From contig OY282370.1 in assembly GCA_958295745.1 (NCBI GenBank), positions 62,001 through 126,000 on the forward strand: 64,000 bases of DNA, read 5' to 3'. This stretch comes from an uncultured Acidimicrobiia bacterium. Its GTDB lineage: Bacteria > Actinomycetota > Acidimicrobiia > Spongiisociales > Spongiisociaceae. The translations under genes were made by a program, and so were the position numbers. Each line of letters begins with the position of its first letter. The first letter of the stretch is position 1. Of the stretch, positions 2,125 to 59,551 are shown piece after piece. The notes under the pieces were generated by a model. It worked only from the letters and a program-made list of their open reading frames with translations, did not search any database and had not been told where the DNA came from.

Positions 2125-3602
2125 GGGCGGGGCCTTCCGTCTCGAAGGTAGGAGGCGGCTGCCGTCCGGTCGTCAAAAGGTATGATCTCCGCGCCGAGAT
2201 CCTGGAACTGCTCGTGGCCCTTTCCGAGGATCAACACCACATCGCCCGGACGGGCCCTGTCCACCGCCAACCCGATGGCCGCCTTCCTGTCCACCTCCGC
2301 TATCACTTCGGCTCGGCCGCCTGCGGCTCCGGCCGCTACTTCACCGACCAGCGCATCCGGATCCTCGAAACGGGGATTGTCCGATGTGATGACCGCCAGA
2401 TGGGCCCGGGCGGCGGCCGCCCCGATCAACGGGCGTTTGGAGGGGTCGCGCCCGCCGGCCGCTCCGACCACCACCGTGACCGATCCTCTGCTGTGGTCGA
2501 GGGCGGCGCTCACCACCGATTCGACCGCGGCCGGGGTGTGGGCGTAATCCACCAGCACGGTGAACGGCTGTCCTTCTTCGACCGGTTCGAGCCTGCCCGG
2601 GATCCGCTCGACCGCTTCCAACCCCTCGACCGTTTCGTCCATCCCGATCCCCGACTGCCGGGCGCAGGCGGCCGCCACCGCCGCGTTGCGAACGTTGTGA
2701 AGGCCGCCGGGCCGTATCCTCGCCTCCGCCTCCTCGCCGCCCGCCCGGAATGTGAAACGGGCGCGGGTCAGACCCACCTCGACGGCGGTGACCCCCACAT
2801 CGTGGCCTTCGCCGAAACCAACCGTGACCACCGGGCCGCGCGCCGATCGAGCCAGGCGGCGCCCGGGCGGATCGGTCACGTCGATCACATGGGCGGCGGC
2901 GCGTCCGTCGAACAGCAGCCTCTTGGCGGCGAAGTACTCGTCCATGCTCCCGTGGAAGTCGAGGTGATCCTGGGACAGGTTGGTGAAGGCGGCCACCGCG
3001 AACGAGGCGCCCTCCACCCGATGGAGGGCCAGGGCATGCGACGACACCTCCATCGCCGCCAGCGTGACCCCCCGTTCCACCATGACGGCGAACATCCGCT
3101 GGAGGTCGGAACCCTCCGGAGTGGTGCGGTCGAGCGGCTCGCCGTCTCCGAACAGCTCGCCGTCTCCGAACAGCCGGGCGCCGAGCGTGCCCAACCTGCC
3201 GAAGGGCCGGCGCGCCGCACGGGCTATGGACTCGAGCATGATCGTGACGGTGGTCTTCCCGTTGGTGCCCGTGACCCCTATGACGTCCAGCCGGCGGCTC
3301 GGGTCGCCGTGAACCAGGGCTGCGGCCGGCCCGAGCGCCCTGCGCGTGTCCGGCACCCTTATCTGAGGCACCGGAAGAGGGGCGAACTCTTCGACCAGCG
3401 CCGCCGCCGCGCCGCGGGAAACCGCTTCATCTATGTAGGTGTGACCGTCTGCCTCGATACCGCGGATGGCGGCGAACAGACAACCGCGAACCGTCCGGCG
3501 GCTGTCATGGGTGACGTCGCATATCGAGGCGCCGCCGCCCCCCCTGAGGTCACCGCCGATCCGTCCTGCCACGGCAGAGAGCTTCACCGGCTCAGCGGGC
3601 AT
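2121..3602 (-). CDS. murE: UDP-MurNAc-tripeptide synthetase MurE
   Basis: Cytoplasmic ligase adding the third peptide residue to UDP-MurNAc-L-Ala-D-Glu. The 493-residue product has VTGTNGKTT for ATP binding, a Mur central-domain NLSQDHLDFH motif and DNPR near residue 408. DNPR is the signature of meso-diaminopimelate-adding enzymes, so DAP-type peptidoglycan is inferred. Its start overlaps the ftsI 3' end by 11 bases and its stop overlaps mraY. The protein is normal MurE length, so it is not a MurE-MurF fusion. It carries an in-frame doubling of LFGDGE in the region after the P-loop. Confidence 0.96.
   Translation of the reverse strand: MPAEPVKLSAVAGRIGGDLRGGGGASICDVTHDSRRTVRGCLFAAIRGIEADGHTYIDEAVSRGAAAALVEEFAPLPVPQIRVPDTRRALGPAAALVHGDPSRRLDVIGVTGTNGKTTVTIMLESIARAARRPFGRLGTLGARLFGDGELFGDGEPLDRTTPEGSDLQRMFAVMVERGVTLAAMEVSSHALALHRVEGASFAVAAFTNLSQDHLDFHGSMDEYFAAKRLLFDGRAAAHVIDVTDPPGRRLARSARGPVVTVGFGEGHDVGVTAVEVGLTRARFTFRAGGEEAEARIRPGGLHNVRNAAVAAACARQSGIGMDETVEGLEAVERIPGRLEPVEEGQPFTVLVDYAHTPAAVESVVSAALDHSRGSVTVVVGAAGGRDPSKRPLIGAAAARAHLAVITSDNPRFEDPDALVGEVAAGAAGGRAEVIAEVDRKAAIGLAVDRARPGDVVLILGKGHEQFQDLGAEIIPFDDRTAAASYLRDGRPRP
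3138..3173. repeat. 18-bp perfect tandem duplication inside murE
   Basis: Two identical adjacent 18-base units (3138-3155 and 3156-3173) encode LFGDGE twice in MurE. The frame is kept. This is probably a slippage duplication in a surface loop. Confidence 0.85.
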
Positions 3603-5355
3603 CCGGCCTCACTCCCATCTGGTGGAGTGAAGCCTCCATCACCTCGGAGAACAGGGGGGCGGCCACCGCCCCTCCGGTGCGTTCCAGGACGCTGTCGCCC
3701 TGGGGGGAGTCGATCACCACCGCTATGACGAGCCGGGGATCCTCGACCGGCGCCATCCCCACGAAACTGGCCACGTAATCATCCGTATAGACACCGAGAT
3801 CCTGGTCGAATCTTCGGGTGGTGCCGGTCTTGCCGCCCGCCGTATACCCCCGCACCGCCGCCTTGGTCCCGGTGCCGTCGTCGACCACCGTCTTGAGCAG
3901 CAGACGAACCCGGCGGGCCGTGTATTCCGAGAGTATCCGTTCCGAAGGGCTGGACGGCAGCCGGTTCACACCGTTGCCGTCCACGATCCCGGTCACCAGC
4001 CGGGGCGTCATCCGCACCCCCCCGTTGGCGATGGTGGCGTACACCGCCGCCATCTGCAGGGGGGAGACGGACAGTGAGTAGCCGATCGAGGCGGATGCGG
4101 GGCAGGTCAGGCATCCGTTGGGCAGGTTGACCGCACCCTGGGCTTCGCCCGGGAAGTCGATGCCGGTGACCCGGCCGTATCCGAAAGAATCCAGGTAGTG
4201 GGCCAGGTGCGTCGAACCCAGATCCTGTCCGATCTTGACCGTACAGACGTTGGAGGAATACCGGACGCAGTCCCTCACGGTCATCAACTGGGGTTCATGC
4301 GGGCTGAAGTCGTTGAAGCACCCGATCACTTCCTCGTTCTCGCAGGCGCCGTCCACCACCTCGATGTTGTCCTGTACCAGATACTGGGTATCCCAATCGA
4401 CTACTTCCTCCTCCAACGCGGCAGAAACCGTGACCGCCTTCTGGGTGGATCCCGGCTCGTACACGGAGCGCACCGCGGTGTTGATGAGTATCCCGCTGGC
4501 AGCATCTAGTTCGGAGCGGTCCGATGGATCGAAGGAAGGGGCCACCACCATGGCCAACACCTCGAAGGTGTCAGGATCCAGTACCACGACGGTGCAGCGC
4601 TTCGCCCCCGTTTTTTCCAGGGTTTCCAGGCACTCTCGATAGGCTACGAACTGCACCTCGCGGTCGAGCGAGGTGAGCAGGTCGGCGCCCGGAACGGCCG
4701 GCTGCACTTCATAACGACCATGCGGGATAACGTGGCCCCCCGGTGCACGCTCGGCCAGGACGCGGCCCGGAATACCCGTCAGCAGCTCGTCGTACTGTGA
4801 CTCCAGCCCTTCGATCCCCTTGGAGTCGATGTCCACGAAACCCACCGTGTGGGCGGCCCGAACACCCGACGGGTACACGCGCTTGGGCTCGACCAGGAAA
4901 TGGATGCCTGCCAGGTCCAGCTCTTCCACCCCGGCGGCCTGTTCCGCCTCGACCTGGCGGGCCACGAACACGAAGGTGGAATCGGAATCGAGCCTATCCC
5001 GCAGCCGGTCGATGTCCAGATCGAGGATTCCTCCCAACCGCAAGGCGGCTTCCACCGGGTCCCGGATCTGTCTCGGATTGGCATAGATGGATCGTGATTC
5101 GATGCTCACCGCAAGCTTGCGGTGTTCACGGTCGTAGATGGTTCCCCGGGCGGCGGAGGTCTCCTCCACCCGCACCCTCTGCTCCTCCGCGGCTTCCCTG
5201 TATCCGGCGGCGTCCACCACCTGTATCTGGAACAACCGGTATCCGATGGTCGCCCAAGCTCCGATGAACAACAGCACGACCGTGAGCAGGCGGATGTCGA
5301 TGGAACGACCGGCCGCCCGCTTCTTTACTCCGATACCCGTCTTCTGCCCCTTCAA
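3592..5355 (-). CDS. ftsI: FtsI, septal peptidoglycan transpeptidase (class B PBP)
   Basis: Division-specific DD-transpeptidase that cross-links septal peptidoglycan outside the membrane. The 587-residue product has a basic cytoplasmic N-terminus, one membrane anchor at about 22-42, a PBP dimerisation domain, and the penicillin-binding domain with the serine motif STQK (about residue 305), SSN (about 370) and KTGT (about 510). It lies between the ftsL-like gene (11-base gap) and murE (11-base overlap), the standard dcw position. Confidence 0.96.
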   Translation of the reverse strand: MKGQKTGIGVKKRAAGRSIDIRLLTVVLLFIGAWATIGYRLFQIQVVDAAGYREAAEEQRVRVEETSAARGTIYDREHRKLAVSIESRSIYANPRQIRDPVEAALRLGGILDLDIDRLRDRLDSDSTFVFVARQVEAEQAAGVEELDLAGIHFLVEPKRVYPSGVRAAHTVGFVDIDSKGIEGLESQYDELLTGIPGRVLAERAPGGHVIPHGRYEVQPAVPGADLLTSLDREVQFVAYRECLETLEKTGAKRCTVVVLDPDTFEVLAMVVAPSFDPSDRSELDAASGILINTAVRSVYEPGSTQKAVTVSAALEEEVVDWDTQYLVQDNIEVVDGACENEEVIGCFNDFSPHEPQLMTVRDCVRYSSNVCTVKIGQDLGSTHLAHYLDSFGYGRVTGIDFPGEAQGAVNLPNGCLTCPASASIGYSLSVSPLQMAAVYATIANGGVRMTPRLVTGIVDGNGVNRLPSSPSERILSEYTARRVRLLLKTVVDDGTGTKAAVRGYTAGGKTGTTRRFDQDLGVYTDDYVASFVGMAPVEDPRLVIAVVIDSPQGDSVLERTGGAVAAPLFSEVMEASLHQMGVRPDAR

Positions 5356-26309: not shown

Positions 26310-26601
26310 CAGACCCGGATTTTCGCGCTCTTCGCCCGAAACCTGCCGGCTTCGCCGGGACCCGCCCCCGCCTCCACCTGTCCAGGTCACCGGATGCGGA
26401 AGGACGCGTGGCCCCGATCCGCACCCACCCGCATATCGAGCGTCGGCAAGTTTCTCGACGCCCGCCCCTTGGATCATCCGCCCGAAAGGGCCGAAGAACC
26501 GGGGCCTAGGCGCCGTTCCGATCACAGCGGCACCGCTGCGATATCTGTTCCTCTATATATACAAGAGGGGTAAGACAGAAACGGAACCCCCCCGGCGTCC
26601 G
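26310..26601 (-). repeat. structured repeat family B, copy 2 (possible small-RNA gene)
   Basis: On the minus strand: TATATA box, CAGATATCGCAG and hairpin as in copy 1, then further downstream GGAGGCGGGGGCGGG followed by the hairpin CCCGGCGAAGCCGG and GCGCGAAAA. This end matches the S-layer-flanking repeat (GGCGGCGGGGGCAGGG, CCCGGCGAAGCCGGG, AACGCGAAAAA). The distance from -10 box to end hairpin is about 215 bases in both. Confidence 0.6.
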
Positions 26602-43910: not shown

Positions 43911-44960
43911 CTATGTCAAGACTTGGTGGGTTTGGGGGGTGTTGGTGTTGTGTTGGAGGTGGGTCCAGACCCGGTCGGAGATGCGTCTTTTGAGGATGCG
44001 GATGGCTTCTTTTTTGGTTTTTCCTCGTTGGAGGAGCCGTTCGTAGTAGCAGCGTCCCTCGGTGCCGGGGCGGGCGATGGGGGTGATGGCCGCGTTGTGG
44101 AGGGCCCGGTTGAGTTGGCGGTTGCCTCCTCGGTTGAGCCTGTGGCGGGTGATCCGTCCTGAGGACGCTTCGATGGGGGCTGTGCCGTTGGCCATGGCGA
44201 AGCGGGCTTTGGTCGGGTACCGGGCAGCGTTGCCGACTTCGGCGATGATCTCGGCTGCGGTCAGGTTCCCGATCCCGTAAATGGTCGTGAGGGAAGTGCC
44301 CAAGGCGGCGACCAGTCGGGTGATCTGGGTGTCGAGTTTTCTGACTTGGCGGAGGAGCCGACGGACGCGTCGGATGCGCTGGCGGGCGATGTCCGCTCTG
44401 GTGGTTCTGTCTGCGGTGATCAGCTTGACGGCCCGTGCCAAGGCCTTGTAAGACAACAACCCCGATCCCAACAGGTTGTGATAGCCCGGACAGAGCAGGG
44501 TGAGGTCGGCGTGGAGGCGGTTGACCTCAGCGGTTCGGGATTCGACCAACTCACGCCGGTAGAACACCAGAGCACGCAGGTCTTCTAGAGCGTCTTGGGG
44601 TCGAGGCGCCGGCAGATCGTCTTCTCGGGCTGCTATCCGGGCTATGGCCAAAGCGTCGATGTAGTCGGACTTGCTGCGGGTCCGCAGGGTCTTTCTGGCC
44701 TGGGCGGTCATCTGGGTAGGAACTTCCACAACCTCTACCTCGCGGTCTTCTGCTATCAGAAACAACGCCAGGGGCCGCCCGTAGCTGCCCGACCCCTCGA
44801 TCCCTACCCGGCCGACGTCATGAGCCTGTAGCCAGGCTGCTGCTCTGCGGTAACCGGCAGGGGTGTTCGGGAAGGTTCGGCGCTCGATGCTCCGTCCCGT
44901 CGGGTCGATGACACATCCCGCCAGGGTGTCTTTGTGGGAGTCTATCCCTGCTGTCGTCAT
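43911..44960 (-). CDS. IS110-family DEDD transposase (recombinase), element 1
   Basis: Protein of 349 residues. The N-terminal RuvC-like domain supplies the acidic residues: TTAGIDSHKD (D), GIEGSGSYG (E) and KSDYIDALAIAR (D..D) near 100. After a central coiled coil, the C-terminal Tnp_20 domain reads TTIYGIGNLTAAEII and ANGTAPIEASSGR, with the candidate catalytic serine. Full length, no frameshift. The 5' non-coding region is about 230 bases, long enough for a bridge RNA. It has no cargo. Confidence 0.93.
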   Translation of the reverse strand: MTTAGIDSHKDTLAGCVIDPTGRSIERRTFPNTPAGYRRAAAWLQAHDVGRVGIEGSGSYGRPLALFLIAEDREVEVVEVPTQMTAQARKTLRTRSKSDYIDALAIARIAAREDDLPAPRPQDALEDLRALVFYRRELVESRTAEVNRLHADLTLLCPGYHNLLGSGLLSYKALARAVKLITADRTTRADIARQRIRRVRRLLRQVRKLDTQITRLVAALGTSLTTIYGIGNLTAAEIIAEVGNAARYPTKARFAMANGTAPIEASSGRITRHRLNRGGNRQLNRALHNAAITPIARPGTEGRCYYERLLQRGKTKKEAIRILKRRISDRVWTHLQHNTNTPQTHQVLT

Positions 44961-51448: not shown

Positions 51449-52644
51449 TCCAAGAACCGGCCTGGACACTCGGTATAGAAGAGGAGTACCTGCTCGTCGA
51501 GATCGAAACCGGCGCGCTGGTCCGCTCCCAGCCCGAAGGGCTGATGGAAAAGGTCAAGAACCTCCGTTACGGGCTGGTGAGCCCGGAGTTCTTCAGCTCA
51601 CAGATCGAGATCGGCACCACCGTCTGCAACAACGTCCAGGAGCTGCGCGCCGAGATCGGCCTGCTGCGGTTGGCGGTTGCGGAAGCCGCCGCCGACTACG
51701 GCCTGGCCCCCATCGCCGCCTCCACCCACCCGTTCGCCCGTTGGGAGGAACAGCAGGTCAGCGCCGGAAAGCGCTACCAGGAGATCGCCGAAGACCTGCA
51801 GGGCGTGATCCGGCGCCTGGTCATCTCCGGCATGCACGTCCACGTAGGCATCGAAGACCCCGACCTGCGGATCGACCTGATGGGGCAGATCTCCTACTTC
51901 CTTCCCCACCTGCTGGCCCTTTCCACCTCGTCCCCGTTCTGGGAGGGCAAGGACACCGGCCTGAAGAGCTACCGCACGTCGGTGATGGTCACCCTGCCCC
52001 GCACCGGCCTGCCCGAACAGTTCACCTCCTGGACGGAATACCAGCGGCACGTGGACATGCTGGTAGGGGCGGGGATCATCGAGGATTCCTCCAAGATATG
52101 GTGGGACATCCGGCCTTCGGGCCGTTACCCCACCCTGGAGATGCGGGTAACCGACCTGCCCACCAGGATGGACGACGTGGTGTCCCTCGCCGCCCTGTAC
52201 GTCTGCCTGCTGCGGATGCTGTGGCGGCTGCGCATCGAGAACCAGAGGTGGCGCTCCTACTCCAACTTCCTGGTGGCGCAGAACTCCTGGCGGGCGCAGC
52301 GCTACGGCGTGGAAGGACAGCTGGTGGACTTCGGCAAGGGCCTCCTGGTGCCGTTCGAAGATCTGGTCGAGGAGCTCATCGAGGTGGTGAAGCCCGACGC
52401 CGAGGCCATGGGCTGCCTGGCCGAGGTGGAGCATATCCGCACCATCTGCCGCCGGGGCACCTCAGCCGACCGGCAGCTGGCGGTGTACGCAGAAGCCGCG
52501 GCGGCCGGCGCCGAACCCCCGGAGGCACTGCAGGCGGTGGTCCACGCCCTCATCGAAGACACCCTCACCGGACACATCGAAGCCGACCGGCTTCAGAAGC
52601 TGAACTCCTCGAGGGCCCGGCTCAGGTCGATGTCGTCCTCGTAG
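51445..52644 (+). CDS. YbdK-type carboxylate-amine ligase (GCS2 family)
   Basis: Glutamate-cysteine ligase-like enzyme of 399 residues. TLGIEEEYLLVEIETGALV is the family start with the metal-binding Glu cluster; ISGMHVHVGIEDPD supplies metal-binding His residues, then WWDIRPSGRYPTLEMRVTDLPT and RWRSYSNFLVAQNSWRAQRYG. Substrates not certain; weak gamma-glutamylcysteine synthetase activity is known in relatives. The last 25 or so residues (from TGHIEADRL) are encoded by the antisense strand of a hisA 3'-end remnant, so the native C-terminus was probably replaced. Confidence 0.9.
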   Translation: MIQEPAWTLGIEEEYLLVEIETGALVRSQPEGLMEKVKNLRYGLVSPEFFSSQIEIGTTVCNNVQELRAEIGLLRLAVAEAAADYGLAPIAASTHPFARWEEQQVSAGKRYQEIAEDLQGVIRRLVISGMHVHVGIEDPDLRIDLMGQISYFLPHLLALSTSSPFWEGKDTGLKSYRTSVMVTLPRTGLPEQFTSWTEYQRHVDMLVGAGIIEDSSKIWWDIRPSGRYPTLEMRVTDLPTRMDDVVSLAALYVCLLRMLWRLRIENQRWRSYSNFLVAQNSWRAQRYGVEGQLVDFGKGLLVPFEDLVEELIEVVKPDAEAMGCLAEVEHIRTICRRGTSADRQLAVYAEAAAAGAEPPEALQAVVHALIEDTLTGHIEADRLQKLNSSRARLRSMSSS

Positions 52645-52649
52645 AGGGC
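52567..52649 (-). pseudogene. remnant of the hisA 3' end
   Basis: 83 bp matching 58812-58893 with about seven differences. On the minus strand it encodes ALYEDDIDLSRALEEFSF before the same stop position, against ALYEGAIDLSRALAEFSC of HisA. It has the same orientation as hisA and lies at the outer edge of the S-layer block, overlapping the ybdK-like gene. Confidence 0.8.
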
Positions 52650-52805: not shown

Positions 52806-53145
52806 AACGCTTTTGAGGGGGAAGATCGCCAAAAAAGTTTTGGATTGGCGCCGGAAGGGTATTGGTGTTGTCTCATTACTGTTGTATAGTGTTGTACGAG
52901 CAGATATCGCAGTGAATCCGGATACTGCGATCAGAGAGGAATCGAACCGCCCAGGCCGACCGCCTCCCGCAGGGCAGGCAGGCGACCGAAGGGCGGAGCG
53001 GTACGAAGTAGCTGTGGCTGAAAAACGCATCGGGCACGGGCGGTGGTAACACGCCCCCGCAGCCCGAAGACGGTTGGTGGTGGCGGCGGGGGCAGGGCCC
53101 GGCGAAGCCGGGTTTTTCGGCGGGAGAACGCGAAAAACCTCGGCT
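52806..53145 (+). repeat. structured repeat family B, copy 3 (left arm of S-layer inverted repeat; possible small-RNA gene)
   Basis: Promoter-like TTGGTG (52862-52867), 17 bases, TATAGT (52885-52890); then CAGATATCGCAGT with its partner ACTGCGAT forming a hairpin; and an intrinsic terminator CCCGGC-GAA-GCCGGGTTTTT near 53098-53117. This gives a predicted transcript of about 215 nt. Related to the copies at 26021 and 26310, and nearly identical to 58515-58805 in inverted orientation. Confidence 0.65.
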
Positions 53146-53280
53146 TAGCGGATAGGCGGACCGCGGCCGTTCCTGTTCGTAACGCCGGTCAGGATCCAGT
53201 TCGGAACCCCTGGCTACGGCTGTGGGATCATCAACCGCCGCAAGCAGTGTTTTCCCAGGTGAGCATCTATCCGCGCACCC
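53146..53280 (+). repeat. inner part of the left S-layer inverted repeat
   Basis: Continues the left arm; together with 53096-53145 it is inverted and nearly identical to 56850-57038. Ends four bases before the stop codon of the S-layer-type gene. Contains GCGGATAGGCGGACCGCGGCCG and AGCAGTGTTTTCCCAGGTGAG words. No coding content recognised. Confidence 0.8.
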
Positions 53281-53283
53281 TCT

Positions 53284-56200
53284 TTAGGACGTGGAGACCT
53301 CGTAGATATCCATGAACACCCCGCCGATGGGCGACGCCGCGTGGAGGGCATCATCCTCGGTGTCGAAGGCCACCAGGTAGTTGAACATGGTGTCCAGCGA
53401 GGAACCCGTCCCGAGGGGCGTACCGGAGGTTTGAGCCGCCCAATCGCCCGAACCCTTGGCGAAGGCGAACACCTCGCCCCGTTCGAGGGCCGCTACGTCA
53501 CCGCCGCCGGCCGCCGCGACCGTAGCACCGTCCGAGCTGATGGCCACGCTCGACCCCAGTTCGGCATCGCTGTCGGACAACTTGACGACAGTAACTGCGG
53601 CTGCGTTAGCCCAACTGTCGGAAGTGAGCACATACACCGCGTTGCCTCCCGGGGCGCCCACCGCCGCGGCGCTGGCGTCGTCGGCCACAGAGACCGACGC
53701 TCCCAACATCAGTCCCTCCGCATCCGCGCCCGTTTCCACCGGCACCGGAAAGGTAGCTGGCGAGCCAGGCCTGAAAGCGCGGATAGCCCCACCTGAACCT
53801 GCATTGGGAACTCCGAAAAAGGCGGTGCCATTGTTGGCGACAGCCAGGGTGTTAGCACTCCCACCCACGGGGAAAGCATAAGTACCTGTTGATAGGTGAA
53901 CGGTACTAGAAGGAAGAGTCCAGGTAAAGCCGTCAGTGGCTGGGTCGTCTGCGAGTCTCCATCTCACCACCTTGTCATCATACTTGACCGCAATGTAGTG
54001 GTTCGGATCCACGTCGGGGGTGGTGCGGCTGATCGCAACCGCGAGACCTAGTTTATCCACTCCGGAGGGGGTCGACGCTGGAGCAAATGTCATCGTAAGC
54101 CCCGTTCCCCAACCAGAGGCGCCCTTGGAAAAAATGTAGAGCTTCCCTGCGCCCTCGCCCGGAGCGCCGACCACGATGTGGGTGCCGCCGATGCCGATGT
54201 CCACGTCGGCGCCGAACATGCCACCCGCTGTCTCGCCGGGAGATTCCAACGTAACCGGGTCGCCGTAGGCACCATCAGCGTCGGCTTCGTACACGTAGAC
54301 CTTCCCGGCGCCGGCGCACAGCACATCAGCCGTAGCAGGGTCACTGTCAGCGTCGCACATGATGTCGGCGCTGGGAGCGGCGACCACGAACACGCCGTGG
54401 TCTACCGCGTAGTTGGCGCCGGCCTCGGTGTCCAAAGCCTTGCTCCACGGCTCTTCCAAGCTGCTGATCTGGCTGACGTGCTTGGAGGCGTTCCGATAGT
54501 CCGTCGCCGAAGCACGCCCGGCGTTTTTGTCGGCGTCTTTCAGGTCTGTCTCGAACTTGGACAAGGTCGCCGCATCACCGATGGAGGTGAACTGATCGTT
54601 GCTGTCGTACCTGATCAACGACACCTCACCGCCACCGAGTATCACCAGCTGGTTGTTGTCGGTGTCGGTCGCCAGCAGGCGGCCCGAAGCGTCCGCGTTG
54701 TCGCTCAGCTCGTTCGCCCAGTAGTGATAGATACGGTCAGCATCGACCGTTATGGCAGTAGCGCCTGAACCGACCGTGACCGAAGCCAGGATGGTTTCGA
54801 TCCCGCTGTCGGACGACTTCCGGTTGTAGGTAAGGCTGGCCACACCCCGCCGGTTGGTAGTCCGCGTCAAAAGGGCATCAGCATCCTCGAACTGACGCGT
54901 CCCCTTGCTGGACGTATCGAACACCAAAGCTGCGGGCGCTCCCTCTTCGGCGCCTGCTTCGGCGCCGATGCCGTCGGCGTCGTCGGAAGTGAACGCCACC
55001 TTCTGGCGGGACACCGGATCGCCGTACTGATCCACCAAAGTAGCCGTAACCGTATTCGCCGCGCCGCTGCCCGTACCCGACGCCTCATGGAAGGAGACCG
55101 CCTGAGCCAACGTCAGCGTCGCAGCCTTAGCCGCGTCGTCGCGCCAGACCACCGCCGCGTCCTCCTCGGCAGTACGGCCCGCCGGATCTTTCGCCATCTT
55201 CAACGTGGTCTTGTCCACCAGTTCCAAATCCCCGTCGTAGGTGATATCCAAATTCAGCCAGGCCTTATCACCGCCGTTGCCGCTGCCCGTCCGAGGATCG
55301 GTCTGACGGTACGACAGCTCGATCTTCCCCGTATCGTCCGTCTTATGAGCCACCGTGCTGCTGCCCGTCGCCGGGGTCGCATTCGTAGCGGCGCTGGCAA
55401 CCGTCGTACCGGCAAACACAGTCACCGACTCGTCCTTGGTAGCCACCGCATTGCCGTCGTCGTCCACCACCTGAATAGTGAACGTAACCCGATCCCCGAA
55501 CTTCGCCGCCTTAGCGTTAGCAGCCATATCATCGGTGATCTGCAGCTTCGTAGCAGGCTTGGTAACCGTGATCTCCACCGACGCCGACACCGTATCACCA
55601 GCTTTGAACTTAGCGCCCAAATCACCGGTCCACGCCCACACCGTCGCCGAAGCACCAAACGACAAGTCGCCGCCCGTGATCTCCACATCCCCATCCGAGT
55701 TCGTAGTCTCATCCGAAGATGCGATCTCACACTTGCCCGCACCATTCCCCACCGACATCACATCGTCGTTGGAACAGCTTCCATCAGACCCGAACGCATC
55801 CCCCGGATTCGTGGACTTGAACAAATCCACCGAAGCATCCGGCATCGCCATATGCGCCGAATCGCGCAACGACACCACCAAATCCACATCCTGCGACGGA
55901 TCAGCTGCGGTGCCGGCAACCGACAACTTATTCGCCTGCATCGTCAACCCAGCCGGACGGGCCACCGTATGCGCCAACATCCGCGTAATGAACGCCGCCA
56001 TCTGCCCCCGAGTAACCAAACCATCCGGAGAGAACTGACTATCCGACGTCCCCCGCGTAACCCCCACCTCGAACATCCGCCGAATCGCCGAATACTGACC
56101 ACGCGTCACGTTCCCGATATCGGTGAACACGGTGTCATCAGGCGAAACATCCGACAACTTGTCCTCGCCGCCAAAAGCGCCCGCACCCCGCCGGGCCTTA

Positions 56201-56712
56201 CCCAAGAAAGCATCCAACATCTCAGCCATGGTCTTGCGAGACACCGCCGTATCCGGCGAGAACCGGCCGCTGCCCGTACCCGACATGATCTCCAACCCGG
56301 CCATCTGATTGACCGCCGAACGCGTCTCGTCCGACGCATCCCCCAAGTCCGTGAAGTCATCGGCAGGGTCCGCCAACAACGACACACCCGCCGGACCCGC
56401 CGCCCTCGTCAAGAACAACGCCATCTGCCAACGCAACACCGGAGCACCCGGATCATACGTAGTCGCCGTACGACCCTTAGTGATCCCATAATGCCCCAAG
56501 CAGTTCACCGCATCCTCGGCGAACGACCCCTCGACGTCGGTCAAACCCAACGACTCCAACGCCGGACCGACACAAGCCGAGTACACCGCCCCGTTATCCG
56601 CCTCACCATCCGCCGCCGCCGCCGGAACCACCCCGACAGCCAGCAGCGACCCAACCAAACCCAAAACAGCAACAACAGCCAACCACGACCGCCGCACACC
56701 AACCAGATCCAT
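53284..56712 (-). CDS. large SLH-domain surface (S-layer-like) protein with Big-type and FG-GAP-like repeats
   Basis: Secreted protein of about 1142 residues. Signal peptide (RSWLAVVAVLGLVGSLLAVG, cleavage near PAAAADGEA). Three SLH domains at about 55-115, 120-185 and 190-250 (GVTRGTSDSQFSPDGLVTRG; TRGQMAAFITRML). Residues about 250-720 are Thr/Asp-rich beta-sandwich modules of bacterial Ig type (VSRQKVAFTSDDADG). From about 740 come FG-GAP-like propeller repeats (FGADVDIGIGGTHIVVGAPG; LGASVSVADDASAAAVGAPG). Likely wall-bound surface layer or adhesin. The start is the ATG after GGAAGGGG. It is flanked on both sides by inverted repeats. Confidence 0.88.
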   Translation of the reverse strand: MDLVGVRRSWLAVVAVLGLVGSLLAVGVVPAAAADGEADNGAVYSACVGPALESLGLTDVEGSFAEDAVNCLGHYGITKGRTATTYDPGAPVLRWQMALFLTRAAGPAGVSLLADPADDFTDLGDASDETRSAVNQMAGLEIMSGTGSGRFSPDTAVSRKTMAEMLDAFLGKARRGAGAFGGEDKLSDVSPDDTVFTDIGNVTRGQYSAIRRMFEVGVTRGTSDSQFSPDGLVTRGQMAAFITRMLAHTVARPAGLTMQANKLSVAGTAADPSQDVDLVVSLRDSAHMAMPDASVDLFKSTNPGDAFGSDGSCSNDDVMSVGNGAGKCEIASSDETTNSDGDVEITGGDLSFGASATVWAWTGDLGAKFKAGDTVSASVEITVTKPATKLQITDDMAANAKAAKFGDRVTFTIQVVDDDGNAVATKDESVTVFAGTTVASAATNATPATGSSTVAHKTDDTGKIELSYRQTDPRTGSGNGGDKAWLNLDITYDGDLELVDKTTLKMAKDPAGRTAEEDAAVVWRDDAAKAATLTLAQAVSFHEASGTGSGAANTVTATLVDQYGDPVSRQKVAFTSDDADGIGAEAGAEEGAPAALVFDTSSKGTRQFEDADALLTRTTNRRGVASLTYNRKSSDSGIETILASVTVGSGATAITVDADRIYHYWANELSDNADASGRLLATDTDNNQLVILGGGEVSLIRYDSNDQFTSIGDAATLSKFETDLKDADKNAGRASATDYRNASKHVSQISSLEEPWSKALDTEAGANYAVDHGVFVVAAPSADIMCDADSDPATADVLCAGAGKVYVYEADADGAYGDPVTLESPGETAGGMFGADVDIGIGGTHIVVGAPGEGAGKLYIFSKGASGWGTGLTMTFAPASTPSGVDKLGLAVAISRTTPDVDPNHYIAVKYDDKVVRWRLADDPATDGFTWTLPSSTVHLSTGTYAFPVGGSANTLAVANNGTAFFGVPNAGSGGAIRAFRPGSPATFPVPVETGADAEGLMLGASVSVADDASAAAVGAPGGNAVYVLTSDSWANAAAVTVVKLSDSDAELGSSVAISSDGATVAAAGGGDVAALERGEVFAFAKGSGDWAAQTSGTPLGTGSSLDTMFNYLVAFDTEDDALHAASPIGGVFMDIYEVSTS

Positions 56713-56849
56713 CAAGACCAACCCCTTCCCTTTCCATTTCTGAACAACATTCCGACAACTCCGGCCCGGTTCACACCAGCCCTGGGATCCCCATCATAAC
56801 AACAGACTGAGCCGTACCGGGGTTCATCGGGAGACAGTTTCGCATAATA

Positions 56850-57038
56850 GGGTGCGCGGATAGGTGCTCACCTGGGAAAACACTGCTTGCGGCGGTTGAT
56901 GATCCCACAGCCATAGCCAGAGGTTTCCGAACTGGATCCTGACCGGCGTTTACGAACAGGAACGGCCGCGGTCCGCCTATCCGCTAAGCCGAGGTTTTTC
57001 GCGTTCTCCCGCCGAAAAACCCGGCTTCGCCGGGCCCT
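56850..57038 (-). repeat. right S-layer inverted repeat, inner part
   Basis: Inverted copy of 53096-53280, about 189 bp with few differences. It ends at GGGCCCT, exactly where the IS110 element begins; the left arm continues without interruption at the same point. Confidence 0.85.
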
Positions 57039-57040
57039 CT

Positions 57041-57279
57041 TACCGTGTTCTGGCATGTCCCCGTGGGATGATTCGGGGATGGTTGCCCGTCACGGCGGGT
57101 AGGGCTGTCGGGCCCTGTCAGATAGATGACTTGGGGCGTGGTGCCGCCCGCCGTGTTGGGTGTGGTTGACCTCTAACAGGAACATGCTCCCAGGTTCTGG
57201 GGCTTTGTAAGGTGGTTGACGGCAGCTGCGCCCGTGGGCGGGTGACCTGTGGAAAAGCTGATTTCGTTGGAAGGAGACA
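57041..57279 (+). ncRNA. candidate bridge RNA of IS110 element 2
   Basis: The 240-base 5' non-coding region holds four guide-like words in the order known for IS621: CGGGCCCTG (57109-57117), identical to the target across the insertion point; GGGGC (57133-57137), complementary to the right target; ACAGGAACA (57176-57184), identical to the element's right end (58505-58513); GTAAG (57207-57211), complementary to its left end (57039-57043). A stem-loop structure is expected around each pair. Confidence 0.6.
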
Positions 57280-58497
57280 ATGATGGATCCCACAGGGATC
57301 GGGGTGTTCGTGGGTGTGGACATCGCCAAAGAAGAACATTTCTGCCAAGCGATAGGCGCTGGAGGAGCCGAGCTGTTCGCCCGGGCGGTGGGCAACAACG
57401 AGGCAGACCTGGAAGGAATGATCGACCAGGCCGAGGTGTCGGGGCGGGTGGTGCTGGTGGTCGACACCACCAGCTCGGGTGCTCATCTGCTGCTGGCAGC
57501 GGCTGCCCGCCGGCGGATACCCGTGGCGTATGTGAGCGGTCTCCAGATGCGCCGAGCGGCGGAACTGTACGCGGGTTCGGCCAAGACCGACCCCCTGGAC
57601 GCGTGGGTGCTGGCGGACTTCGCCCGCCGCAACGCCGATCGTCTGGTATGGGTCGAGGTAACCGACGAAGTGTTGATCCGGATGCGGGTCCTGTCGGGCC
57701 GCGATGAGGACCTGGCAGCCGACTCGACTCGGACGATCAACCGTCTTCGGGACGCGATGGTGTCTGTTTCCCCTGGTCTGGAGCGTGTTCTGGGTTCCAA
57801 ACTAGTCCAGAGGGGCGTCCGTGAGCTGCTGGTGCGCTGGCCTGTGCCCACAGATCTGCGAGCAGCGGGTAAGACACGGATAAGAAACTTGTTGAAAAAG
57901 TATTATTCCAACAAGCCGCACAAGGCGGTTGAGCTGACAGACCGGATCTGGGCGGCGCTCGGAGCTCAGACCCTCACCCTGGCGGGCGAAGCCACCTGGG
58001 GGGAGGTCATCACCGACCTGGCCAGCACCCTGGAGGGGATATACACCAAACGCGCCCGCCTGTCCGCGGCTATCGAGGAGGCCTTCACCGCTCACCCTTT
58101 AGCCGAGATATTGATATCGGTCCCAGGGATCGGCGTCCGGACCGGCGCCCGTATCCTGACCGAGATCGGTGACCCACACCGGTTCGCCAACGGATCCCGC
58201 CTAGCGTCCTACGCCGGCCTAGCCCCGACCATCCGCCGATCCGGCCGAACCCAAAACACCACCAGACGCAACCCCGGAGGGAACCACCGACTCAAAAACG
58301 CCATGTACTGGACCGCGTTCTCAGCCTCCCAACACGACCCAGCCGCCCGGGCCTACTACCAACGCAAACGAACCGAAGGCAAACGCCACGCCACCGCCGT
58401 CACCCACGTCGCCCGCCGCCGATGCGACCTCATACTCGCCGTACTCAAAAACCAAACCCTCTACAACCCACCCGAACCAGCCCCCGAACCCGTTTGA
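57280..58497 (+). CDS. IS110-family DEDD transposase (recombinase), element 2
   Basis: Protein of 405 residues. RuvC-like domain: GVFVGVDIAKEEHF (D), VVLVVDTTSSGAHL and KTDPLDAWVLADFAR (D..D) near 107. The C-terminal Tnp_20 domain has ILISVPGIGVRTGARILTEIG and RLASYAGLAPTIRRSGRTQN with the candidate catalytic serine near 310. AAGGAG precedes the tandem ATGs. It is intact and differs substantially from element 1, so they are independent arrivals. Only 17 bases separate its stop from the element's right end. Confidence 0.94.
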   Translation: MMDPTGIGVFVGVDIAKEEHFCQAIGAGGAELFARAVGNNEADLEGMIDQAEVSGRVVLVVDTTSSGAHLLLAAAARRRIPVAYVSGLQMRRAAELYAGSAKTDPLDAWVLADFARRNADRLVWVEVTDEVLIRMRVLSGRDEDLAADSTRTINRLRDAMVSVSPGLERVLGSKLVQRGVRELLVRWPVPTDLRAAGKTRIRNLLKKYYSNKPHKAVELTDRIWAALGAQTLTLAGEATWGEVITDLASTLEGIYTKRARLSAAIEEAFTAHPLAEILISVPGIGVRTGARILTEIGDPHRFANGSRLASYAGLAPTIRRSGRTQNTTRRNPGGNHRLKNAMYWTAFSASQHDPAARAYYQRKRTEGKRHATAVTHVARRRCDLILAVLKNQTLYNPPEPAPEPV

Positions 58498-58514
58498 CAA
58501 ACCGACAGGAACAC

Positions 58515-58805
58515 GCCCCCGCCGCCACCACCAACTGTCTTCGGGCTACCTCGGGCGTGTTCACCCGGGGCCGTGCCCGATGCGTTTTCAGCCACAGCTA
58601 CTTCGTACCGCTCCGCCCTTCGGTCCGTTGCCTGCCCTGCGGGAGGCGGTCGGCCTGGGCGGTTCGATTCCTTTCTGATCGCAGTATCCGGATTCACTGC
58701 GATATCTGCTCGTACAACACTATACAACAATAATGAGACAACACCAATACCCTTTCGGCACCAATCCAAAACTTTTTTTGGCGATCTTCCCCCTCAAGAC
58801 GCTCA
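58515..58805 (-). repeat. structured repeat family B, copy 4 (right S-layer arm, outer part)
   Basis: Inverted copy of 52806-53095 with roughly 5-10% differences, including the same promoter-like TATAGT, hairpin CAGATATCGCAGT/ACTGCGAT and GCGGAGCGGTACGAAG words. The terminator of this copy is separated from it by the IS110 insertion, so a transcript from it would run into the element. Confidence 0.8.
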
Positions 58806-58837
58806 ACCGTGACCGGACACATCGAAGCCGACCGGCT

Positions 58838-59551
58838 TCAGCAGCTGAACTCCGCAAGGGCTCTGCTCAGGTCGATGGCGCCCTCGTAGAGGGCCCTTCC
58901 GATCACCGCCCCGTCTATCCCGCGGACCGCCAGGCTGCGCAGGTCGTCCATATCGGCGATCCCTCCGGCCGCCAGCAGCTCGGCGTCGGGCGCCAGCGAC
59001 CGCACCCGGTCGAGCAGCTCCAGGTCCGGGCCGCTCATAGCCCCGTCCCGCAGCACGGCAGTCACCAGGAACTTGGTCACCCCCGCCCCCAGGGCGCCCT
59101 CCACCACCTGCTCGAACCGCCGGCCCTCGTCCAGCCAACCCTCTCCCCCGGCCCTGCCGTCCCGCACGTCGACCGCCGCCATCACCCGGTCGGGAGAGCC
59201 GAGGGCCGCCGCCTGCTCCAGTATCTCGGGGGACCACACCGCGCTGGTGCCCATCATCACCCTGTCGACCCCGCATTCCAGGGCCGACTCGACGTCCTCC
59301 ACCGTCCTTATCCCCCCGCCCGCCTGCACCGACACCCCCCGTCCGGCCACCTTCCGCCAGAGGTTCGGGTCGGATCGGCCCCGGCGGGCGCCGTCCAGGT
59401 CCACCACGTGCACCCATCGGGCGCCGGCCTCCCGCCAGGCGGACACCTGCTCCTCCACCGAATCCCCGTACCTGGTAACGGCGCCGTAGTCACCCCGCAG
59501 GAGGCGCACCACCCCCCCGCCCAGGACATCGACCGCCGGAAATATCTCCAT
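58838..59551 (-). CDS. hisA: HisA, ProFAR isomerase (histidine biosynthesis)
   Basis: Isomerase (beta-alpha barrel) of 237 residues acting on the ProFAR intermediate. MEIFPAVDVLGGGVVRLLRGDY has the catalytic Asp near residue 7; VHVVDLDGARRG, VQAGGGIRTVEDVE and the second catalytic Asp in VTAVLRDGAMSGPD (near 170) are in place, with AAGGIADMDDLR near 195. The start was set at MEIFPAV; an upstream in-frame ATG adds a basic stretch. It points opposite to the other his genes. Its 3' end is duplicated at 52567. Confidence 0.94.
   Translation of the reverse strand: MEIFPAVDVLGGGVVRLLRGDYGAVTRYGDSVEEQVSAWREAGARWVHVVDLDGARRGRSDPNLWRKVAGRGVSVQAGGGIRTVEDVESALECGVDRVMMGTSAVWSPEILEQAAALGSPDRVMAAVDVRDGRAGGEGWLDEGRRFEQVVEGALGAGVTKFLVTAVLRDGAMSGPDLELLDRVRSLAPDAELLAAGGIADMDDLRSLAVRGIDGAVIGRALYEGAIDLSRALAEFSC

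What the first reader, a model, noticed from the sequence alone, without database searches (positions are those of the whole stretch)
57041..57279. Bridge RNA candidate of IS110 element 2 with all four guides in the expected order
Seen: CGGGCCCTG matches the target across the junction; GGGGC is complementary to the right target; ACAGGAACA equals the element's right end; GTAAG is complementary to the left end; order and spacing run target loop then donor loop. Known: IS621 uses a bridge RNA from this position with this guide order. The core dinucleotide is not clean (CT at the left, AC at the right), so details are uncertain. The 9-base matches are unlikely by chance in 240 bases, but GC bias weakens the first.
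Basis: partly seen in the sequence, partly recalled or inferred. Interest (0 to 1): 0.8.

Follow-up and report, generated by a model that had tools for sequence, protein, structure and literature searches.

The report
Bridge-RNA jumping gene targeting REP-like repeats
This is the guide-RNA gene of an ordinary mobile element of the IS110 family; close relatives with altered guides sit at correspondingly altered target sites in the same genome, which shows that the guides are real, and its one oddity is that the two DNAs it joins do not share the usual two-letter core.

Summary
The element is window 57039-58514 (1,476 bp): 241-bp left end, 405-aa IS110 recombinase, 17-bp right end. An uninterrupted copy of its target lies 4 kb away (minus strand, cut point 53093/53094): CCGGGCCCT|GCCCCC. 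The four guides are present in IS621 order: LTG CGGGCCCT, RTG GGGGC(GT), LDG ACAGGAACA, RDG GTAAGGT.

Chance and shared ancestry are poor explanations. Across relatives the target guides change with the flanks (RTG/RT permutation p=1e-5; LTG/LT p<5e-5). The RNA's stems covary (16 pairs with double changes; 0/500 shuffles reach that). In this genome RTG GGGGC, GGGGT and GGGGA sit beside GCCCC, ACCCC and TCCCC. The target is a REP-like hairpin repeat (33 hits, 0 in the control).

A TTGACA box in the right end and TACCGT in the left end, 17 bp apart once circularised, form an IS621-like split promoter.

It differs from IS621 in the core. The target has C-T/C, the donor A-C; RTG and RDG both carry GT, the complement of the donor core. 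Two copies with the same guides sit at poorly matching sites, and free-RNA folding pairs LTG with RTG. I call it a new member of a known kind with an unusual, non-shared core. Expression and activity are untested.

The parts
57039..58514 (+). whole IS110-group element, 1,476 bp (left end CTTACC..., right end ...GACAGGAACAC)
   Evidence: flanks rejoin exactly in the empty paralogous repeat at 53093/53094; same ends in copies L014-L017
57039..57279 (+). left end (LE), 241 bp, encodes the bridge RNA
   Evidence: 100% identical in 3 copies, 89-97% in 3 others
57041..57046 (+). TACCGT, -10-like half of the split promoter
   Evidence: 17 bp from TTGACA across the inferred RE-LE junction; conserved in intact relatives; activity inferred
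57057..57080 (+). 5' stem-loop of the RNA
   Evidence: MFE fold
57091..57155 (+). target-binding stem-loop (lower stems 57091-57099/57147-57155 and 57103-57105/57143-57145, upper stem 57117-57120/57127-57130)
   Evidence: RNAalifold and pair counts with double changes
57109..57116 (+). LTG CGGGCCCT, equals left target CGGGCCCT
   Evidence: empty site; LTG/LT permutation p<5e-5
57133..57139 (+). RTG GGGGC + core/handshake GT, complementary to GCCCC of the right target and AC of the donor
   Evidence: RTG/RT covariation p=1e-5
57159..57232 (+). donor-binding stem-loop
   Evidence: covarying lower stem
57176..57184 (+). LDG ACAGGAACA, equals the right end of the element
   Evidence: 17 of 5000 shuffles match as well
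57207..57214 (+). RDG GTAAGGTG, complementary to CAC|CTTAC of the inferred circle junction
   Evidence: tracks LE variants CTTAC/TTTAC in relatives
57280..58497 (+). IS110 recombinase, 405 aa (D14, D62, D104, D107, S321)
   Evidence: PF01548 + PF02371, NF033542 203 bits, nearest folds IS621/ISCro4
58488..58514 (+). right end with TTGACA (-35-like; overlaps the stop codon of the recombinase) and donor half GACAGGAACAC
   Evidence: conserved in relatives
57020..57038 (+). left target flank: REP-like hairpin CCCGGC-TTCG-CCGGG followed by CCCT
   Evidence: 33 TTCGCCGGGN{2,8}CCCCCGCC hits in the genome, 0 control
58515..58523 (+). right target flank GCCCCCGCC
52813..53281 (-). empty copy of the dispersed 469-bp repeat containing the target

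Best explanation
The stretch encodes the bridge RNA of an IS110-group insertion sequence. Inferred cycle: the recombinase excises the element as a circle; joining RE to LE creates a TTGACA-17-TACCGT promoter that transcribes a roughly 180-nt RNA; [quoted passage not shown] the recombinase joins the two DNAs. Target choice: a dispersed REP-like hairpin repeat. Shown by sequence: ends, empty site, guide complementarity, guide/target covariation, conserved two-loop fold. Inferred: expression, binding, catalysis, circle. The core is not shared: target C-Y, donor A-C; position 9 is tolerated by U (LTG, LDG) and G (RTG, RDG) through wobble, while position 8 of the RTG pairs with the incoming donor strand, not the target.
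For: Empty site splits exactly at the element ends; three identical and several diverged copies in the genome; RTG/RT permutation p=1e-5, deduplicated p=3e-4; LTG/LT p<5e-5; within the genome, differences between copies concentrate in the guides (Fisher p=0.0015 for L016 and 0.00025 for L023); 95% of stem cells pair, 16 double-change pairs, 0/500 shuffles; fold z=-3.06; model of the RNA recovers loci upstream of IS110 recombinases in other Acidimicrobiia; recombinase families and fold; split promoter conserved; target is a repeat family whose linker variants include matches to the L016 and L017 guides.
Against: No RNA or activity data. Free RNA pairs LTG with RTG. L015 and the second element of L014 carry the same RNA but sit at sites matching LTG poorly. 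In L017, L053 and L084 the left junction is one base shorter than the LTG register predicts. For the C-rich targets of the wider family the LTG match is mostly CCCC and weak as evidence. Copy L017 alone shows no concentration of changes in guides (p=0.34).
Confidence: 0.93

Rival explanations
1. The left end is a structured 5' untranslated region or regulatory small-RNA region of the transposase gene, and the guide matches are coincidences of a GC-rich sequence.
For: Small RNAs that regulate the transposase are described for ISPpu9, an IS found in REP sequences (PMC8450116 abstract). The LTG match alone is reached in 3.8% of shuffles and the 5-base RTG is not significant alone.
Against: RTG and LTG change together with the flanking DNA across relatives; changes between copies concentrate in guides; joint match 0 of 5000.
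Confidence: 0.04
2. An IS1111-type element with a seekRNA downstream of the gene.
For: Same recombinase superfamily.
Against: Right end is 17 bp and cannot encode such an RNA; the long non-coding end is upstream, as in the IS110 group (PMC11187229).
Confidence: 0.01
3. A degenerate copy whose RNA is real by descent but no longer active.
For: Some relatives are frameshifted or truncated; the window copy cannot be tested for activity here.
Against: Intact ORF, three identical copies at different sites, promoter halves and all four guides intact.
Confidence: 0.1

Closest known systems
IS621 bridge RNA system (Durrant et al. 2024, PMC11208160; Hiraizumi et al. 2024, PMC11208158)
   Same: RNA in the long left end, 5' stem-loop then target loop then donor loop, LTG/RTG/LDG/RDG order and strand pattern, promoter reconstituted at the RE-LE junction, REP-type palindromic target, RuvC plus Tnp domains with conserved serine.
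   Different: Larger recombinase (405 against about 328 aa), Asp at the second acidic position (D62) where IS621 has E60, GC-rich target, and no shared CT core: target C-T/C, donor A-C; RTG/RDG core bases GT complement the donor core.
ISEc21 and IS110-type seekRNA (Siddiquee et al. 2024, PMC11187229)
   Same: Upstream non-coding region, bottom-strand match 5' of top-strand match, circle-junction promoter, no duplication of target bases.
   Different: Different recombinase cluster by length (405 against 358 aa) and unrelated target.
IS1111 group
   Same: Same recombinase superfamily and RNA-guided principle.
   Different: RNA would be in the right end; here the right end is 17 bp.

Membership tests
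IS110 family, IS110 group | recombinase with DEDD/RuvC-like domain and Transposase_20 domain with conserved serine | tested here: met
   PF01548 121 bits, PF02371 86 bits; NF033542 203 bits over a cut-off of 140; D14, D62, D104, D107, S321-G322 invariant in four relatives (second acid is D, not E)
IS110 family, IS110 group | left non-coding end longer than right | tested here: met
   241 bp against 17 bp, from the empty site
IS110 family, IS110 group | scarless insertion without target duplication | tested here: met
   junction against empty site
[quoted passage not shown]
   the free RNA also pairs LTG with RTG
bridge RNA | LTG and RTG pair with bottom-left and top-right target strands | tested here: met
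   complementarity and covariation across independent insertions
bridge RNA | LDG and RDG pair with the RE-LE donor junction | tested here: met
bridge RNA | promoter formed at the RE-LE junction | tested here: inconclusive
   TTGACA-17-TACCGT sequence conserved; transcription not testable here
bridge RNA | RNA binds the recombinase and is required for recombination | not testable with these tools
   needs biochemistry
IS621-type subgroup | CT core dinucleotide at both ends, shared by target and donor | tested here: not met
   CT at left, AC at right; AC at right in all other relatives with a readable right end, CC usual at left
IS1111 group | long right end carrying the RNA | tested here: not met
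   17-bp right end

The most novel reading that the evidence does not exclude
In this Acidimicrobiia clade the recombination core is not shared by target and donor: position 9 is read by wobble (Y), and core position 8 of the RTG is complementary to the donor, so that it pairs only after top-strand exchange. The core thereby acts as an extended handshake guide, and junctions keep either core after a mismatched intermediate (target core at the left of most copies, donor core at the left of L126).
Probability: 0.35. Interest if true: 0.6.

Novelty: new member of a known kind. Interest (0 to 1): 0.42.

Why it matters
It is a natural, multi-copy case in one genome in which bridge-RNA target guides and their targets have changed together, with more than a dozen unoccupied target copies present, so it tests the guide rules without engineering. 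If the non-shared core is real, it relaxes a constraint described for IS621 and gives a candidate recombinase for GC-rich targets with a different core rule.

Tried and rejected
Rfam gathering-threshold search of the window found nothing; no bridge-RNA family was matched, so I built a model. Viral contigs hold no relative. A linear promoter scan of the integrated left end finds none, as expected for a split promoter. A longest-match test for the RTG found only a chance 7-mer elsewhere, so RTG rests on covariation. Alternative core registers (core at 57039-57040, or TC/CG) were considered; the register with RD starting at C57039 fits RDG GTAAG-GT and the empty site best, but a blunt exchange with no core cannot be excluded. 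The tandem remnant in L014 was considered as recombination at the LDG copy; the breakpoint is 6-7 bases away from the expected place, so this is not supported.

Full report
Setting. The window is C1:62001-126000 of a 3.3-Mb genome assembly; its relatives in public records are Acidimicrobiia metagenome-assembled genomes. The finding lies in the left end of an IS110 element whose recombinase is ORF 57280-58497 (405 aa).

Boundaries and empty site. A BLAST of the region against the window itself shows that the element's flanks are the two halves of a repeat that is uninterrupted at 52813-53281 on the minus strand. Aligned base by base, the left flank ends at T57038 and the right flank begins at G58515: empty site CGGCTTCGCCGGGCCCT|GCCCCCGCCGCC. 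The element is therefore 57039-58514 with no duplicated bases. The genome holds three identical copies of the left end, diverged copies at 97, 96 and 89% (L023, L016, L017), and a 153-bp remnant.

Guides. LTG CGGGCCCT at 57109-57116 equals the left target exactly. RTG GGGGC at 57133-57137 is the complement of GCCCC. LDG ACAGGAACA equals the right end. RDG GTAAGGTG is the complement of CAC plus CTTAC, i.e. the inferred circle junction GACAGGAACAC-CTTACC. In 5,000 dinucleotide shuffles of the left end no shuffle matches all four. The 5-base RTG is not significant alone.

Covariation of guides and flanks. I collected relatives with a covariance model of the RNA. RTG/RT pairs: GGGGC/GCCCC (window), GGGGT/ACCCC (L016), GGGGA/TCCCC (L017), GGGGG/CCCCC (most), AGGGT/ACCCT (L084), TGAGA/TCTCT (L053, four of five). 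Permutation gives p=1e-5 over 18 pairs and 3e-4 over 9 distinct pairs; LTG/LT gives p<5e-5. Relatives are not independent, but window, L016, L017 and L023 share one genome and differ in guides and flanks together; in L016 and L023 the changes concentrate in guides.

RNA structure. The window RNA folds more stably than shuffles (z=-3.06). The consensus has the two stem-loops expected for target and donor loops; of 32 stem pairs 16 show double changes and 95% of cells pair, never reached in 500 shuffles, and slid versions fall to 33-54%. A caution: in the free RNA the LTG and RTG pair with each other. Because both target halves are C-rich, LTG (same sense) and RTG (complement) must be complementary, so this is a consequence of the target rather than evidence against the guides; it may lower activity.

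Target family. The target is part of a dispersed repeat: six full 469-bp copies (including the one in the window) and more than 30 partial ones. The hairpin and linker TTCGCCGGG-N-CCCCCGCC occurs 33 times against 0 in the reversed control. Linker variants include CCCT|G (commonest), CCCA|G, TTCCC|G and CCCC|T; TTCCC matches the LTG of L016 and CCCC|T matches the LTG and RTG of L017. This resembles the insertion of IS621 into REP elements (PMC11208160).

Exceptions. L015 carries the same RNA but sits at GCGGGTTACCC|GCACC: the RTG fits 4 of 5, the LTG only with a 3-base bulge. The second element in L014 sits within the donor-loop region of another copy, with no clear guide match. These look like off-target events. 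In L017, L053 and L084 the left junction is one base shorter than predicted.

Core. In IS621 the CT core is shared and pairs in all four guides (PMC11208160, PMC11208158). Here target positions 8-9 are C-T (or C-C) and donor A-C. The right junction is AC in the window copy and in the relatives with a readable right end; the left is the target's CT or CC in most, but AC in L126, whose LTG otherwise fits in register. RTG and RDG both carry GT, complement of the donor core, and LTG and LDG carry U at position 9, so C or T at position 9 is tolerated by wobble. Position 8 of RTG thus pairs only with the incoming donor strand, like the handshake guides of IS621 at positions 6-7 (PMC11208158). This reading is inference; a blunt exchange without a core would give the same junctions in most copies.

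Promoter. TTGACA at the end of the recombinase gene and TACCGT or TACCTT in the left end are 17 bp apart in the inferred circle in the window, L016, L017, L050, L129, L131, L052 and L142 (L126 TACCAT); decayed relatives lose it. This matches the split promoter of IS621; transcription is not shown.

Protein. Domains, catalytic residues and a moderate AlphaFold model (pLDDT 73, from only 4 sequences) point to IS621 and ISCro4 as nearest solved structures, although the superposition is loose (TM about 0.35-0.43).

Verdict. A genuine IS110-group bridge RNA, well supported by natural covariation; a known kind. The non-shared core is the part worth an experiment.

Noticed in passing
window 43911-44960 (-): A second, unrelated IS110-type recombinase (349 aa, 25% identity to the first over part of its length); the genome search lists a second copy of that type at C1:139044.
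   Followed up: partly
window 52813-53281 (-) and 56849-58797 (+): Copies of the 469-bp dispersed repeat in inverted orientation flank the S-layer-homology gene 53284-56721; five further full copies lie elsewhere in the genome.
   Followed up: partly
window 52561-52649 and 58806-58894: A short direct repeat (90% identity over 89 bp) at the ends of two different genes (a glutamate-cysteine-ligase-like ORF and a hisA-like ORF), just outside the inverted repeats.
   Followed up: no
L014 about 3031-4657: A 153-bp left-end remnant of the element directly followed by a complete second copy inserted in the donor-guide region of its RNA gene.
   Followed up: partly
window 26317-26378: Partial copy (81%) of the REP-like target repeat.
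   Followed up: no
L126 1501-1644 and L134 1516-1655: Relatives whose left junction keeps the donor core (AC or CAC), unlike all other copies.
   Followed up: partly
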